The notes below the pieces were generated by a model. The model made no database searches. It was given only the letters and a program-made list of their open reading frames with translations, and was not told where the DNA came from. Shown piece after piece: positions 21,454-46,919 of a DNA stretch of 64,000 nt. Made by a program: the position numbers and the translations under genes. The stretch is from Pycnococcus provasolii (taxonomy: Eukaryota; Chlorophyta; Pseudoscourfieldiophyceae; Pseudoscourfieldiales; Pycnococcaceae), in the NCBI GenBank assembly GCA_938743325.2, contig OW568902.1:124001-188000 (forward strand), in the 5' to 3' direction. The stretch's first letter is position 1; each line of letters opens with the position of its first letter.

Positions 21454-24400
21454 ATGGTCCGAGGAATCGCCGTGCAAGTGGTCCCGCGCGAAGAAGGCGT
21501 GGCGGCGGAGCCACCAGCCTTCGCTGCGGCCGCGGAACATAACAAAGCTCTCGAGCAGGAGTACCTCGCGCGTCGCGAGTCCATCGCGAAGTTCGACTTC
21601 GACTCATTCAAGATTGAGGAGGTGGAGCGTCGCGAGCAGCTCGGTGCAGGACGTGCGAACGATATATTCTTCAGCCACTGCTGGAGAGGGAAGGATGAGA
21701 AGATCACCAAACGCAAGTGGGCCATCAACGAAAGACTCACGCGGCCGGAGGCGAAAGACGGTCCCAACTACCGCGCGTGGTGCGACTACCTTGACTTGCA
21801 GGCGAAAGGGCCCGTAGCGTGGCGCAAGGAGATCGAGGATGGCATACGTGACGCGGGAAAGATGGTGTGCCTCGTGGACATGCCATACCTTCACTCGTTC
21901 AACTGCCTGCAAGAGGTCGCCATGGCGCAACGCATGGGTAAGCCAATCATCTTCGTGATGCTCGAGAAGACGGCGCTTGACATCATATCGTCAGCAGACC
22001 ACGGCGCAAGACAGCTATGGAGCGACAAACCGCCGCCCGAGACTGGCGACCTTGCCAAGCCTCTAAGCGCGTTCGCCAACGCCAACTGGGGCTCTGCCGA
22101 TGGGACGGACCCGTTCAACAAAGAGAAGCTAAGAAAGTGCTTGGAGCGTATCAGCAACGTCAACTTCTGCATGTGTAAGGATGACGACTATGCGAACAAA
22201 GGCGAGGAGGGTGTGATGGAAATGGTGATTGACTTCGTGAGCGCCGACCTACCGTACCAGAAGGAGCACGCGCGTTTGCTTGCGCTTGCCGCCGATGACT
22301 CGAAGCTTCTCTACGGCAAGGAGCTTAAGGCTGCGCAAAGCTGGCTTGGTGTGGCGGAGAAGGAAGGGCGCGAGCCGCAGCCCACTGAGGAAATGAAGAA
22401 CATGATTGAGCGCTCGGCGCGCGCAAGCAGGCTGAGAGGCTTGGCGATCGGCGCAGTGATGTCCTTATTATTCATCGGAGCACTCATCGGCATGGTGGTT
22501 GCCATCGCGTTTGCGGAGAACGCGCGTGTGGCGGAGAAAACTGCGAATGCCGAGGCGGCGAATGCGCGTTTGGCGAAGACAAATGCAACGAACCAGCTTA
22601 GTCGTGCACTCAATGCAGAGCAACTTGCGAATGAGGAGGCAGCGAATGCGCGTTTGGCGGAGAAAAATGCAACGAACCAGCTTAGTCGTGCACTCAATGC
22701 AGAGAACCTTGCGAATAAGGAAGCGGCAAATGCGAGGGCTGCTGAGGCGCAAGCCCTTGAAGAGGTGAATCGCACACTCGTGCAACTCGCCATTTCATAT
22801 GCGACTGATGATAGAAAGCCATTGTACAACCGCCTCAGGTTTGGCCAGGCGGCAATTCAGATTGCCAGCAATACATATAGTGGCACAGACGACGCTCAGG
22901 TCTACCAAACATTAGCTGAAACTATTGGGCATTATCAAGCTGGTGTTGAGCTCAGCAGGTACGCCACACCTAATATACAGATCTTCAGAGTGGCGTGGAG
23001 TCTGGACGGTCAGCGTCTCGCAGCCGCGAGCTTGGACGGTACGGTTCGCGTATGGTCGGCGTCGTCGGGCGAGACGGAGCGCGTGCTGCAAGCCGATTTG
23101 GTCACCTCAGTTGCGTGGAGTCCGGACGGTCAGCGTCTCGCAGCCGCGAGTGCGGACGGTACCATTCGCATATGGTCGGCGTCGTCGGGCGAGACGGAGC
23201 GCGTGTGGCAAGGACACACCAGCGAGATCTCCTCAGTTGCGTGGAGTCCGGACGGTACGCGTCTCGCATCCGCGAGTGTGGACGCTACGGTTAACATATG
23301 GTCGTCATTGACGGGCGAGACGGAGCGCGTACTGGAAGGACACACCGATCGGGTCTACTCCGTGTCATGGAGTCCGGACGGTACGCGTCTCGCATCCGCG
23401 AGTGTGGACGCTACGGTTCGCATATGGTCGTCATCGACGGGCGAGACGGAGCGCGTACTGGAAGGACACACCTCTTGGGTCTACTCCGTGTCATGGAGTC
23501 CGGACGGTACGCGTCTCGCATCCGCGAGCTGGGACAAGACGGTTCGCATATGGTCGTCATCGACGGGCGAGACGGAGCGCGTGCTGGTAGGACACACCGA
23601 GTTGGTGTTCTCAGTTGCGTGGAGTCCGGACGGTCAGCGCCTCGCATCCGCGAGTGTGGACGCTACGGTTCGCATATGGTCGGCGTCGTCGGGCGAGACG
23701 GAGCGCGTGCTGCAAGGACACACCGATTATGTCACCTCAGTTGCGTGGAGTCCGGACGGTGATCGTCTCGCATCCGCGGGTGCGGACGCTACGGTTCGCA
23801 TATGGTCGGCGTCGTTGGGCGAGACGGAGCGCGTGCTGGAAGGACACACTGACTGGATCAACTCAGTTGCGTGGAGTCCGGACGGTGATCGTCTCGCATC
23901 CGCGAGCTTGGACGGTACGGTTCGCATATGGTCGGCGTCGACGGGCGAGACGGAGCACGTGCTGGAAAAACTATCATACTACGATAATGTCTTATCAGTT
24001 GCGTGGAGTCCGGACGGTCAGCGTCTCGCGTACACAATTAGTGTCGTCGGTATGGTTTTGATTTGGTCTGCGTCGACGGGCGAGCTTGAGCACCGCCTGC
24101 TAGGACAAACCATCTCTAGTTTTTTCTACTTAGTGGCGTGGAGTCCGGACGGTGATCGTCTCGCAGCCGCGAGCAAGGACGGTACCATTCGCATATGGTC
24201 GGCGTCGTCGGGCGAGACGGAGCGCGTGTGGCAAGGACACACTGATTTGGTCACCTCAGTTGCGTGGAGTCCGGACGGTCAGCGTCTCGTATCCGCGAGT
24301 GCGGACGCTACGGTTCGCATAGGGTCGGCGTCGTCGGGCGAGACGGAGCGCGTGCTGCAAGGACACACCAAAGCGGTCTCCTCAGTTGCGTGGAGTCCGG

Positions 24401-24873
24401 ACGGTCAGCGTCTCGCATCCGCGGGTGCGGACGCTACCATTCGCATATGGTCGTCATCGACGGGCGAGACGGAGCGCGTGCTGCAAGGACACAACGGTTA
24501 TGTCTCCTCAGTTGCGTGGAGTCCGGACAGTCAGCGTCTCGCATCCATTTCGGGGATGGACAGCGCGGTTCGCATATGGTTGAAGGGCTCATCAATCTGT
24601 GGCGACGATTCTTCCATTCCGGATTGGAATAGCATAACGGTTATTCAGGATAAGTACATTTTTATGGGATTTGCATTTTCACCCTTAGATTCGACTCTAG
24701 CTATTGGAATTGGTAAAAAGATCCACCTTTATTTGCACATGGGAAAATCGGCTGATAAACTTGTTGAAGATGCCGTTCGTATTGCTGGCCGTGCAAATGT
24801 GACAGCCATCAGGGAAACGCTGTTATCCTCTCCAGGCAGCGGCAGCTCCGCTAGTGCGTGCGCGTCGAAGTAA
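21454..24873 (+). CDS. TIR - transmembrane - WD40 repeat receptor-like protein
   Basis: From ATG 21454 the product has 1139 residues. The TIR-like domain starts at about 70 (DIFFSHCWRGKDE) and includes SFNCLQEVAMA, where Glu154 sits at the place of the catalytic Glu of NAD-cleaving TIR domains. A linker with KLLYGKELKAAQSWLG, typical of bacterial TIR/WD40 proteins, leads to a membrane segment at about 329-354. An Ala/Asn/Glu-rich coiled coil follows at about 355-450. From about 510 to 1070 there are 13-14 WD40 units, most of exactly 42 residues and nearly identical, enough for two seven-bladed propellers. The expected role is a sensor whose propeller recognises a ligand and whose TIR domain signals. 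The architecture is bacterial-like, so ancient or recent horizontal transfer is possible. ATG 21193 in the same frame is an alternative start, but it overlaps the divergent zinc-finger gene. Confidence 0.8.
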   Translation: MVRGIAVQVVPREEGVAAEPPAFAAAAEHNKALEQEYLARRESIAKFDFDSFKIEEVERREQLGAGRANDIFFSHCWRGKDEKITKRKWAINERLTRPEAKDGPNYRAWCDYLDLQAKGPVAWRKEIEDGIRDAGKMVCLVDMPYLHSFNCLQEVAMAQRMGKPIIFVMLEKTALDIISSADHGARQLWSDKPPPETGDLAKPLSAFANANWGSADGTDPFNKEKLRKCLERISNVNFCMCKDDDYANKGEEGVMEMVIDFVSADLPYQKEHARLLALAADDSKLLYGKELKAAQSWLGVAEKEGREPQPTEEMKNMIERSARASRLRGLAIGAVMSLLFIGALIGMVVAIAFAENARVAEKTANAEAANARLAKTNATNQLSRALNAEQLANEEAANARLAEKNATNQLSRALNAENLANKEAANARAAEAQALEEVNRTLVQLAISYATDDRKPLYNRLRFGQAAIQIASNTYSGTDDAQVYQTLAETIGHYQAGVELSRYATPNIQIFRVAWSLDGQRLAAASLDGTVRVWSASSGETERVLQADLVTSVAWSPDGQRLAAASADGTIRIWSASSGETERVWQGHTSEISSVAWSPDGTRLASASVDATVNIWSSLTGETERVLEGHTDRVYSVSWSPDGTRLASASVDATVRIWSSSTGETERVLEGHTSWVYSVSWSPDGTRLASASWDKTVRIWSSSTGETERVLVGHTELVFSVAWSPDGQRLASASVDATVRIWSASSGETERVLQGHTDYVTSVAWSPDGDRLASAGADATVRIWSASLGETERVLEGHTDWINSVAWSPDGDRLASASLDGTVRIWSASTGETEHVLEKLSYYDNVLSVAWSPDGQRLAYTISVVGMVLIWSASTGELEHRLLGQTISSFFYLVAWSPDGDRLAAASKDGTIRIWSASSGETERVWQGHTDLVTSVAWSPDGQRLVSASADATVRIGSASSGETERVLQGHTKAVSSVAWSPDGQRLASAGADATIRIWSSSTGETERVLQGHNGYVSSVAWSPDSQRLASISGMDSAVRIWLKGSSICGDDSSIPDWNSITVIQDKYIFMGFAFSPLDSTLAIGIGKKIHLYLHMGKSADKLVEDAVRIAGRANVTAIRETLLSSPGSGSSASACASK
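22984..24590 (+). repeat. 126-bp WD40 repeat array
   Basis: Units with the core TGGAGTCCGGACGGT recur every 126 bp (for example at 23247, 23373, 23499, 23625 and 23751, measured at TCCG). Differences cluster in two places: just after GHT at the end of each unit, and just before the D-A/G-T of the next. The spacing is a multiple of three, so other frames stay open as shadows. Confidence 0.9.
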
Positions 24874-44813: not shown

Positions 44814-46919
44814 TTACTCCGGTTTCTCCTCATTGAACCATTGTTGCATGGGATTGCTCATTGTTGAGTGTTGTGCCTCGTAAATGACGCAAACGGGACC
44901 GCCGCCAGGTGGGCCCTGCGCCTCCGCACCTCCACTAACGTACAGCCTCGTGTCGCCGAACAGCGCGCCGAGTGCGCCACCGACGGCGGCACGCGCATGG
45001 CGCGTCGACGCGATGTCACTGTCAGTATACATGGTCGTACGCTTCCCACGGACCGTCGACGACGGATCAGCCTTGCTCAAGACGGCGACGATGTGTTTGC
45101 GTGCATCGTCGTGCAATGTGCCATTCTCGACGCGCAGGCCGGCGCTGTTGAGGCTTCTCACGACGGACGATGTGTCCAGCGCATCTTTCATGACGGAATT
45201 CACGCACATGAGGTTGCCCGGCGCGCCTGCGCGGTTGCCCAGCACGACAACTTCAACGTTCATCAGCTCGACGCCCGCGGATGCCGATGCGACGCTGGAA
45301 TATTCGCCAGACTCGCCTGTCGCCAGGGCAACTCCCAACGCGGATGCATGCCGGCTCAGTGCCATGGACTCCAGCGTGTCCTTCGTCGCGCACGTCGCGT
45401 TACGCCGTTCTTTTGCCTCATTCACCCGCTCTGTTGTGAGCAGGGGGCACTTCACTTGTACAAATGCCGCGTCGGAGGGACTGAGCTTTGCGTCTGCGCA
45501 CGCTTGCAGCACAGCCTCTTTTGTCGCCTCCACCTGTGCGTCGGCTCCAATCTCCTCCGGCAGCAGCGTGCGTGACGTTGCGGATCCCACCACGAGGCGA
45601 TGTGGGCCCTCGGTTCTTTCTCCGCCGTCTTCTTCGCCACTGTTGCGTCCGAGCACGAGGAAGTGCGGGGTTAACACGCCCTCCGTGCCTCCACTCATGA
45701 CGACAGCCACCCCGTCGTCGAGCCGTCTCTTCTTGAGCGTCTCGTGGATGCAATGGCTCGCATATCCTCGCGTGAAGTCGTTCACGCATCCATTTCCTTC
45801 GGTTTTTCCCACCACGGACAGCACCTTGACGTCTTGCTTTGTATCCAGCCACCGCTCCAAGGCTGCGGTGTCGCCTGGATGTGCCGTGTCGACGACATGT
45901 GCGATAACTGCACCTTTTGCTCGATTGCTGTGATAAGGGTTAAAGCACGTTTGAATCGTCGGCGCCGTCGCGTATGTGACCTCAAAGCCTTGCACGGGCT
46001 CGCCTGGGAACTCAAGCCTGAACAGCAGACGTTCGTGCTTGGTCGCGTCGAATGGCGTGGCGGCGTGGAGCAGGCACCGATTATCCCAAAGCACGAAGTC
46101 GCCCGCCTCCCACTTGTGGTAGTACGCCTCCTCGACGATGAGTTTCCCGAGGTTGTCGATGAGCTTCGACCCGTCGTCTTCTCGCCGCTCGCCGCTGAGC
46201 ACACACCTCGTGTTCTTCGGGTTCACGTACAGCGACGGTTCCCCCGTCGGAGGGTGTACGCGCACGATTGGCCACGTCTGGTCCGGTTTCTTCGCGACGT
46301 CGGCGGCGGTCACCTTCTCCCTTGACGGGTCGCGTCTCTCGAGCAGGCGCATGAACACTTCCCAGCTGTGGACGCTCGACATGAACGCATATTGTTTTTG
46401 CTCTGACTCTGCCAGGCGGCGGTACGCGCGCGTGCAGCTTGCGAACCCCGTGCGTCCTCCCGTGCTGGGCAGAGGGTAGTCTCCCTTGGGCGCGTACAGC
46501 AAGATTGCCTTTTTGGGACTGGCTAGGAACGACCCGTCTGTGTGCCACTCTTCGATTTCCGTGATGGCTGGCTTGTACTCGGCGATGCGGTCACCTGGTT
46601 TGCACCCGACGACGCCTAGGTCGTCCTGCTTGCGTGCCCTGTAGTTCCCGAGCAGGGCGACGCATTCCGCGTCGTCGATTCCCGGCGACTGGCCAGGCCA
46701 CCTGTCGTACTTCAACGGTTCGCCAAGGAAGGGTGCAAACTTCGCCGCCGCCTGTTGGCACTCGCGAGGCGTGAGTGTTTGCCCTTTGACGACGAGGAGT
46801 CCCCCACGCGCCTGCATGGCCCCCCACATGACGGCGACATCTTGTGACGACGCGAGTCTTAAGTCAACATGAGAGACTGTGACGCCCAATGCGCTGGAAG
46901 AGTTGGGACAGATGCGCAT
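44814..46919 (-). CDS. TauD-type dioxygenase fused to a barbiturase / cyanuric-acid-hydrolase domain
   Basis: 701 residues from ATG 46919. Residues of about 1-325 form a 2-oxoglutarate/Fe(II) dioxygenase of the TauD/TfdA type, with His126 and Asp128 in EEWHTDGS, His285 in CLLHAATPFD, and Arg297/Arg301 for the co-substrate. Residues of about 338-682 match ring-opening amidohydrolases (AtzD/barbiturase). Signatures include GKTEGNGCVNDFTRG (371-385), SGGTEG (Ser409), FVQVKCPLLT (Lys490), SRHASALGVA, SVASASAG, a Lys616 region and a final SGGAEAQGPPGGG (Ser662). These supply the Lys/Ser pairs of the three pseudo-symmetric subdomains. A two-step reaction is suggested: oxidation of a pyrimidine-like ring, then hydrolytic ring opening. 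That would make a one-polypeptide oxidative pyrimidine route for nitrogen salvage. Substrate is inference. There is no obvious targeting signal. Confidence 0.85.
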   Translation of the reverse strand: MRICPNSSSALGVTVSHVDLRLASSQDVAVMWGAMQARGGLLVVKGQTLTPRECQQAAAKFAPFLGEPLKYDRWPGQSPGIDDAECVALLGNYRARKQDDLGVVGCKPGDRIAEYKPAITEIEEWHTDGSFLASPKKAILLYAPKGDYPLPSTGGRTGFASCTRAYRRLAESEQKQYAFMSSVHSWEVFMRLLERRDPSREKVTAADVAKKPDQTWPIVRVHPPTGEPSLYVNPKNTRCVLSGERREDDGSKLIDNLGKLIVEEAYYHKWEAGDFVLWDNRCLLHAATPFDATKHERLLFRLEFPGEPVQGFEVTYATAPTIQTCFNPYHSNRAKGAVIAHVVDTAHPGDTAALERWLDTKQDVKVLSVVGKTEGNGCVNDFTRGYASHCIHETLKKRRLDDGVAVVMSGGTEGVLTPHFLVLGRNSGEEDGGERTEGPHRLVVGSATSRTLLPEEIGADAQVEATKEAVLQACADAKLSPSDAAFVQVKCPLLTTERVNEAKERRNATCATKDTLESMALSRHASALGVALATGESGEYSSVASASAGVELMNVEVVVLGNRAGAPGNLMCVNSVMKDALDTSSVVRSLNSAGLRVENGTLHDDARKHIVAVLSKADPSSTVRGKRTTMYTDSDIASTRHARAAVGGALGALFGDTRLYVSGGAEAQGPPGGGPVCVIYEAQHSTMSNPMQQWFNEEKPE

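What the first reader, a model, noticed from the sequence alone, without database searches (positions are those of the whole stretch)
21454..24873. TIR - membrane - WD40 protein of bacterial architecture in an algal genome
Seen: a TIR-like domain with a candidate catalytic Glu154, the KLLYGKELKAAQSWL linker, a membrane helix, an Ala-rich coiled coil and 13-14 WD40 units. Known: this order is common in bacterial signalling and defence proteins, and TIR domains can cleave NAD. Inference: a horizontally acquired or retained immune or allorecognition receptor.
Basis: partly seen in the sequence, partly recalled or inferred. Interest (0 to 1): 0.8.

Follow-up and report, generated by a model that had tools for sequence, protein, structure and literature searches.

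The report
Bacterial-type TIR-WD40 membrane receptor in alga
An alga carries a small family of membrane proteins built like uncharacterised bacterial TIR receptors, and in two of them the recognition surface of the sensor part looks reshuffled, which makes them testable candidates for self/non-self or pathogen receptors.

Summary
Window 21454-24873 (+) is an intronless 1139-aa frame: TIR (Pfam TIR_2, E 1.6e-8), linker, one membrane helix, Ala-rich coiled coil, 13 WD40 repeats plus a degenerate 14th. Glu154 sits in S-x-x-C-x-x-E and is invariant in the window protein and 15 bacterial relatives. The linker is decisive: a bacterial linker profile finds three algal paralogs (E 2.6e-9 to 1.7e-7) and none of 15 other algal TIR loci. 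Cyanobacteriota, Chloroflexota and Poribacteria have the same order. TIR-only trees do not settle origin; the stem is long and no donor is identified. New here: in two paralogs the repeats are alike but vary most at columns that include the four diversifying positions of fungal HET-E-type allorecognition receptors, and repeat-by-repeat correspondence between the paralogs is lost. Positive selection is clear in one paralog only. Best reading: a bacterial-type TIR receptor with a diversifying WD40 sensor. NADase activity, topology and immune role are inferred; horizontal acquisition is plausible but undated.

The parts
21454..24873 (+). whole gene, 1139 aa, no intron; three relatives elsewhere in the genome (contigs C15, C30, C25)
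21664..21972 (+). TIR domain, residues 71-173
   Evidence: Pfam TIR_2 E=1.6e-8 over cut-off; the 4 Foldseek PDB matches at E<=0.001 are plant TIR-domain chains or a TIR-type NLR chain, RPP1
21913..21915 (+). codon of Glu154, candidate catalytic residue in S-x-x-C-x-x-E
   Evidence: invariant in 16 aligned proteins; its column faces a Glu of Cat1 in the profile alignment (that this Glu is catalytic is recalled); Gln in the C25 relative
21973..22218 (+). region with extra stretches in the algal copies between TIR core and linker, about residues 174-255
   Evidence: much longer than in the 15 bacterial rows, of which L058 also has some extra residues; low model confidence
22267..22437 (+). bacterial-type linker, residues 272-328; profile core 281-325
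22453..22515 (+). membrane helix, residues 334-354
   Evidence: hydropathy 2.59; 4 basic and 1 acidic residue in the 15 on the N side, 2 basic and 3 acidic on the C side
22516..22833 (+). Ala-rich coiled coil (boundaries by eye)
   Evidence: sequence; similar stretches in several bacterial relatives
22984..24633 (+). 13 WD40 repeats, mostly 42 aa, about 70% mean amino-acid identity among the first 12; most variable columns 41, 42, 1, 18
24634..24768 (+). degenerate 14th WD40 repeat (boundaries by eye)
   Evidence: sequence; strands in the model, low confidence

Best explanation
The gene encodes a single-pass membrane receptor of a bacterial kind (TIR, linker, membrane helix, coiled coil, WD40). 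The TIR lies in the cytosol; the coiled coil and a 14-blade, probably double, WD40 propeller lie on the other side of the membrane, likely the cell surface. Ligands touch the top face of the propellers, whose hypervariable residues set specificity. Repeat exchange and loss within the array, and perhaps between the C42 and C15 genes, keep renewing that face. Binding or clustering brings TIR domains together through the coiled coil; the TIR then consumes NAD or makes a nucleotide signal through Glu154, giving a defence or cell-death response. Shown: domain order, linker homology, conserved Glu, three relatives, repeat likeness, hypervariable columns, lost positional correspondence. Inferred: topology, ligand, clustering, catalysis, outcome, and acquisition from bacteria at an unknown, probably old, date.
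For: Linker profile: hits C42 (2.6e-9), C15 (9e-9) and C30 (1.7e-7), 0 of 15 other algal TIR frames, and one chance hit at 0.31 among 528 sequences. Algal-only profile: matches in 10 of 11 bacterial genomes chosen because they hold the bacterial family; 24 of 33 matches lie in the linker half, best of these E 2.4e-7. Same order in bacteria: of 73 bacterial frames with the domain (some genes counted twice, many cut at 1.5-kb flanks), 61 have a membrane helix after it and 34 a helix plus 3 or more WD40; a cyanobacterial plasmid example. Repeats: columns 42 and 1 flank a mostly Val/Ile column at the d-a loop, and 18 and 20 flank the Asp of the b-c turn. By spacing and loops these match the four Podospora codons (PMC1805685, passages). 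At these four, dN/dS is 5.84 in C42 against 0.74 elsewhere; random sets of four columns reach that pN in 4 of 20000 draws (C42) and 10 of 20000 (C15). Same-ordinal repeats of C42 and C15 are no more alike (78.0%) than others (77.8%), P=0.32, although the parts from N-terminus to helix are 88.5% identical with dS 0.19. C42 repeats 4 and 5 are the ones most like C15 repeats (83-92%), as exchange would give. Columns 1 and 18 also lead in Nostoc/Tolypothrix relatives L045, L050 and L051, with 41 close behind. Basic residues on the N side of the helix. The C15 relative ends in a proline-rich and a Cys-rich stretch, of cell-surface look (recalled).
Against: No activity, ligand, location or expression data. 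Positive selection is clear only in C42: in C15 the four columns have dN/dS 1.71, and their pN-pS excess is reached by 1598 of 20000 random sets. Column 20 is less variable than 41, 42, 1 and 18, and some other columns vary too; column 10, in the other (a-b) loop, ranks third by pN in C42. I saw the variable columns before reading the Podospora positions. Repeats are not independent, so dN/dS is rough. The C30 relative has ordinary diverged repeats; of two other bacterial relatives with 5 or more usable repeats, L054 and L060, neither shows the pattern clearly. Glycosylation motifs (0 before the helix, 4 after) say little: bacterial relatives have up to 17 after the helix. tblastn of the algal TIR half found nothing in plasmids at E<=0.01. 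TIR trees do not resolve origin. TIR model mean pLDDT 67.7.
Confidence: 0.5

Rival explanations
1. The repeats are alike only because the propeller was recently amplified from a single blade, a common process; the protein is a bacterial-type membrane sensor with no immune or recognition role.
For: Highly repetitive propellers are widespread, about 70% of those collected being bacterial (PMC9218822, passages); the best structural match is a highly repetitive propeller, 2ymu, 37% identity.
Against: Substitutions concentrate at overlapping columns (1, 18, with 41 or 42) in C42, C15, three bacterial relatives and an algal WD40-TIR-kinase; dN/dS at the four positions is well above 1 in C42.
Confidence: 0.25
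2. A TIR inherited vertically in this algal lineage was joined independently to membrane helix and WD40, so that likeness to bacteria is convergence.
For: The TIR-only tree does not reject grouping with the other algal TIRs (p-AU 0.508) or plant TIRs (p-AU 0.314); other TIRs of this alga sit with WD40, Ank, Arm, kinase or GTPase domains.
Against: The linker between TIR and helix is homologous to the bacterial one and was not found in the 15 other algal TIR frames.
Confidence: 0.08
3. Membrane TIR signalling protein in a non-immune role, for example mating, stress or sensing of bacterial partners; the WD40 part binds diverse host or partner proteins.
For: Among ten other window frames scanned with Pfam none looks like a defence gene: an ion channel with a cyclic-nucleotide domain, DAP3, HEAT repeats, an exchanger, enzymes.
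Against: Loss of repeat correspondence and the hypervariable columns fit non-self recognition better.
Confidence: 0.2
4. Bacterial contamination in the assembly.
For: Intronless, bacterial domain order.
Against: Lies in a 321-kb contig with eukaryotic genes such as DAP3; relatives on three other contigs; codon use correlates 0.77 with eight pooled window genes, a Nostoc relative -0.28; the genome has 51 chlorophyll-binding matches.
Confidence: 0.02

Closest known systems
Bacterial TIR-linker-membrane-WD40 proteins, e.g. Tolypothrix sp. PCC 7712 plasmid protein WP_264267989.1 (annotated 'TIR domain-containing protein')
   Same: order of parts, linker, membrane helix, much-alike WD40 repeats in which columns 1, 18 and 41 vary most
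   Different: the algal copies have extra stretches before the linker and a shortened linker start; 23-28% identity over TIR and linker to 15 bacterial relatives; no function for the bacterial ones in anything I read
Fungal HNWD allorecognition NLRs (Podospora HET-E, HET-D, HET-R; PMC1805685 and PMC12222747, passages)
   Same: WD40 repeats kept alike, four hypervariable top-face positions, probable double propeller
   Different: they have NACHT and HET domains; this has a TIR and a membrane helix and no NACHT match
Plant TIR-NB-LRR receptors (RPP1, RPS4, Roq1)
   Same: TIR fold, conserved Glu motif
   Different: no NB-ARC or LRR found; not grouped in the TIR tree, though grouping is not rejected
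Red-alga (Chondrus crispus) NB-WD40 proteins with TIR (PMC7145615, passages)
   Same: TIR and WD40 together in an alga, with a transmembrane-type domain reported
   Different: those have an NB domain; none found here
Dictyostelium TirC (PMC13142454, abstract, passages, section 5)
   Same: eukaryotic TIR of bacterial origin with a predicted membrane helix
   Different: the passages I saw describe no linker or WD40 in it; it is closest to bacterial TIR-STING; NADase activity is shown there, not here

Membership tests
TIR domain | profile match over the curated cut-off | tested here: met
   TIR_2 35.5 bits against 28
TIR domain | TIR fold | tested here: met
   the 4 Foldseek PDB matches at E<=0.001 are plant TIR domains or a TIR-type NLR, though model mean pLDDT is 67.7 and further hits are mixed
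TIR NADase | conserved Glu in S-x-x-C-x-x-E | tested here: met
TIR NADase | Glu154 lines a nucleotide pocket | tested here: inconclusive
   helix and motif right; coordinates not available
TIR NADase | NAD turnover | not testable with these tools
   needs an assay
bacterial TIR-linker-membrane-WD40 proteins | homologous linker | tested here: met
   E 2.6e-9; reverse test with an algal-only profile
bacterial TIR-linker-membrane-WD40 proteins | helix, coiled coil and WD40 in that order | tested here: met
   coiled coil by eye
bacterial TIR-linker-membrane-WD40 proteins | placed inside the bacterial clade | tested here: inconclusive
   52/64 placement, long stem; one clade with 24 picked bacterial TIRs not rejected, p-AU 0.139
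fungal HNWD receptors | NACHT domain | tested here: not met
   none of 16 NACHT matches in the genome lies in this gene; none in its first 596 aa counted from 21193
fungal HNWD receptors | WD40 repeats kept alike with four hypervariable top-face positions | tested here: met
   selection clear in C42 only; top face inferred from loops, not measured
plant TNL receptors | NB-ARC and LRR | tested here: not met
   not among the 4 families listed for the first 596 aa at E<=10; the rest is WD40 repeats; the whole-protein list was cut at 25 of 55
Toll-like receptors | LRR ectodomain before and TIR after the helix | tested here: not met
   TIR is first, WD40 last
known anti-phage TIR systems (PADLOC, NCBIfam) | match beyond the TIR segment | tested here: inconclusive
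   only N-terminal parts of 3 algal and 3 bacterial proteins were scanned; mostly TIR-segment or coiled-coil matches, with two Aga_TIR matches of L054 reaching past the TIR

The most novel reading that the evidence does not exclude
A unicellular alga displays a recombination-diversified WD40 recognition surface on its cell surface, coupled through one membrane helix to a cytosolic TIR enzyme of bacterial descent: a eukaryotic self/non-self or virus receptor that unites a bacterial signalling chassis with the repeat-shuffling logic of fungal allorecognition, in a genome that also holds NACHT-WD40 candidates with similar repeats.
Probability: 0.3. Interest if true: 0.88.

Novelty: new variant of a known kind. 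Interest (0 to 1): 0.63.

Why it matters
Immune and allorecognition receptors of single-celled algae are little known (recalled). This family gives a concrete candidate with a named residue to test, a named recognition surface, two copies with reshuffled arrays, one copy with ordinary repeats (C30) and one whose Glu is replaced (C25) as natural controls. It links an uncharacterised bacterial receptor family to a eukaryote and shows overlapping hypervariable WD40 positions in bacteria, alga and, by published positions, fungi. Resequencing strains would test it directly.

Tried and rejected
Plasmid tblastn with the algal TIR half: no match at E<=0.01, three weak ones at E<=10. Viral contigs: none for the algal profile or the bacterial one; each scan used only two short peptide patterns. 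PDB phmmer with the algal TIR: no TIR; with another algal TIR: none. NCBIfam, PADLOC and PHROGs on the algal half: nothing convincing. TIR-only tree: does not resolve origin. A first dN/dS script stopped with an error after its main rows and used columns chosen from the same data; replaced. Script one search failed on a file name; redone. Paper searches on TIR with WD40, algae or repeat propellers; in the listings and passages that I saw I found no TIR-membrane-WD40 protein of an alga without an NB domain. That library is open-access only. Dropped before counts: L044 left out of the TIR-only tree; bacterial TIRs there were 24 of 79 segments, picked by hand; repeat 13 and the degenerate 14th left out of repeat statistics; 3 of 79 bacterial segments removed as 90% or more alike before the first tree. 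In the phylum scans only up to six candidates a genome were scored, and G002, which matched, shows no match, so those counts are lower bounds.
Full report
What is there. The window lies in contig C42 of an unnamed 32.3-Mb genome in 46 contigs. That genome has 51 matches to the chlorophyll a/b-binding family, so it is a photosynthetic eukaryote; I did not test whether it is a green alga. The gene at 21454-24873 (+) is one open frame. Window genes near it include a mitochondrial-ribosome DAP3 gene, a 3720-aa proline-rich frame and an ion channel with a cyclic-nucleotide domain. Codon use agrees with eight pooled window genes (correlation 0.77); that of a Nostoc relative does not (-0.28).

Anatomy. 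TIR 71-173. Glu154 in S-x-x-C-x-x-E, with Trp109 and Asp111, is invariant over 16 aligned proteins, the window's and 15 bacterial ones. Then come extra stretches seen in the algal copies, a linker, a membrane helix at 334-354 with four basic residues on its N side, an Ala-rich coiled coil (by eye), 13 WD40 repeats and a degenerate 14th. The WD40 model has 55 strands and a mean pLDDT of 68.8, mostly 75-92 within the array. Its best PDB match is 2ymu, a highly repetitive propeller, at 37% identity. The TIR model is weaker (mean pLDDT 67.7). Its 4 PDB matches at E<=0.001 are plant TIR domains or the TIR-type NLR RPP1. That is a match of fold, not of descent.

Relatives in the same genome. A search with the N-terminal half found four places: itself, C15 (88%), C30 (65%) and C25 (30%, E 4.9e-7). 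C25 has Gln where Glu154 stands and Gly for Cys151. TIR_2 matches 18 places in the genome, 16 over the cut-off; 3 belong to this subfamily. Of the 15 others, 9 were scanned with Pfam: 6 carry Ank, Arm, kinase, GTPase or WD40 partners, and 3 show a TIR alone (sequences). Similarity to C15 runs from 21463 to 24821, inside the coding part.

Bacterial counterparts. One, from Tolypothrix, is TIR-linker-helix-WD40. The other, from Kovacikia, has three TIR-linker units and no WD40 found. A profile of these two found 16 loci in the genome collection, several with helix, coiled coil and WD40. Tests with the algal sequences alone: an algal-only profile matched 10 of 11 genomes chosen because they hold the family (12 loci named, one not held), with 24 of 33 matches in the linker half. 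It matched 13 of 386 genomes in the phylum of G002, a Nostoc genome, and 10 of 400 in the phylum of G008, an Anaerolineae genome, G008 included. In the opposite direction a bacterial linker profile found C42, C15 and C30, none of the 15 other algal TIR frames, not C25, and one chance hit at E=0.31, in 528 sequences. Among 73 bacterial frames with the domain, 61 have a helix after it and 34 a helix plus at least three WD40. Some genes are counted twice because two searches fetched them, and many frames are cut.

Origin. In a TIR-plus-linker tree of 79 rows the three algal proteins are one clade with a stem of 2.4 changes per column, placed with 52/64 support beside two proteins found in the scan of the phylum of G008. 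In a TIR-only tree of 48 rows (24 bacterial ones picked by hand) they stand apart from 14 other algal TIRs and from three plant TIRs. Yet neither grouping is rejected (p-AU 0.508 and 0.314), nor is one with the bacterial set (0.139) or with its single-TIR members (0.264). Hence: bacterial kind, yes; donor, date and direction, open.

Sensor. The first 12 repeats average 69.7% amino-acid identity within C42 and 80.5% within C15. Many columns are invariant or nearly so; columns 41, 42, 1 and 18 vary most in both genes. Column 20 and some others, such as 37 in both and 10 in C42, also vary. In the model, 41 and 42 lie in the d-a loop, 1 in the first residues of strand a, and 18 and 20 in the b-c turn. 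Podospora HET-E-type receptors have four diversifying codons, 7, 9, 25 and 27, in the d-a loop and the b-c turn, each pair around a conserved residue (PMC1805685, passages). Counting residues, 42/1 around column 43 (mostly Val or Ile) and 18/20 around Asp19 have the same spacing. At these four, dN/dS is 5.84 in C42 (rest 0.74) and 1.71 in C15 (rest 0.61). The amino-acid-changing rate is reached by 4 and 10 of 20000 random sets, but the excess over the silent rate is strong only in C42 (5 of 20000; C15 1598 of 20000). I had seen the variable columns before reading the paper. Of 18 bacterial frames examined, 6 had five or more usable repeats. In L045, L050, L051 and L070 (a cut copy of the L050 gene) columns 1 and 18 lead, with 40, 41 or 42 close behind; L054 and L060, with less alike repeats, show no clear lead. 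The algal WD40-TIR-kinase L040 shows columns 1, 18, 20, 41 and 42. Between C42 and C15, repeats in the same place are no more alike (78.0%) than repeats in different places (77.8%), while C42 repeats 4 and 5 are unusually like C15 repeats. The parts from N-terminus to helix are 88.5% identical with dS 0.19. The arrays look reshuffled since the genes split. C30 has ordinary repeats.

How it may work. Basic residues on the N side of the helix put the TIR in the cytosol, and C15 ends in a proline-rich and Cys-rich tail. Together these suggest that the WD40 half faces outward; this is inference. Glycosylation motifs (none before the helix, four after) do not help, since bacterial relatives have many. 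Ligand binding at the top face, clustering through the coiled coil and TIR catalysis at Glu154 follow known TIR biology (recalled; TirC in PMC13142454 is a eukaryotic example). None of it is shown here.

Known work. The TIR atlas preprint (PMC13142454; abstract, passages, section 5) mentions SARM1-like TIRs of green algae and has no occurrence of WD40 in its main text. Chondrus NB-WD40-TIR proteins (PMC7145615, passages) and Chlamydomonas NACHT-WD40 (PMC4773052, passages) show that TIR or NACHT with WD40 is not new in algae. Fast WD40 amplification and its possible immune role in cyanobacteria are published (PMC9218822, passages). New here, as far as my searches tell, are the bacterial TIR-linker-membrane chassis in an alga and the hypervariable WD40 columns on it.

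Noticed in passing
own genome G000: C7, C21, C30, C23 (two), C44, C41, C12, C6, C3, C32 (places): Eleven frames of 1431-1593 aa carry both a NACHT match and a WD40 array roughly 43-57% identical to the window's: NACHT-WD40, NLR-like candidates. Only 3 of the 11 NACHT matches are over the cut-off, and weak NACHT matches also occur in all 14 control genomes.
   Followed up: partly
L030-L044 (own genome): Fifteen further TIR loci; of 9 scanned, Ank-TIR (2), TIR-GTPase-Ank, TIR-Arm, WD40-TIR-kinase, Ank-kinase-TIR, and 3 with a TIR alone.
   Followed up: partly
L007:785-4477: The C25 relative keeps TIR-like and membrane parts but has Gln at the place of Glu154 and, by eye, a linker start of bacterial length; possibly an inactive copy.
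   Followed up: partly
window 44817-46919 (-): One frame matches TauD dioxygenase followed by the AtzD/TrzD ring-opening amidohydrolase family, a fusion that looked unusual to me.
   Followed up: no
L005:4932-5726 (-): C-terminal tail of the C15 relative: proline-rich stretch followed by a Cys-rich part, no Pfam match at E<=0.001.
   Followed up: partly
L062, L046, L093: Bacterial proteins with several TIR-linker units in a row: three in L046 (Kovacikia) and L093, six over 40 bits in L062 (Parabeggiatoa).
   Followed up: no
own genome C31:133072-142609 and C31:360395-366434: Two clusters of six chlorophyll-binding matches each, all with identical scores, on one contig.
   Followed up: no
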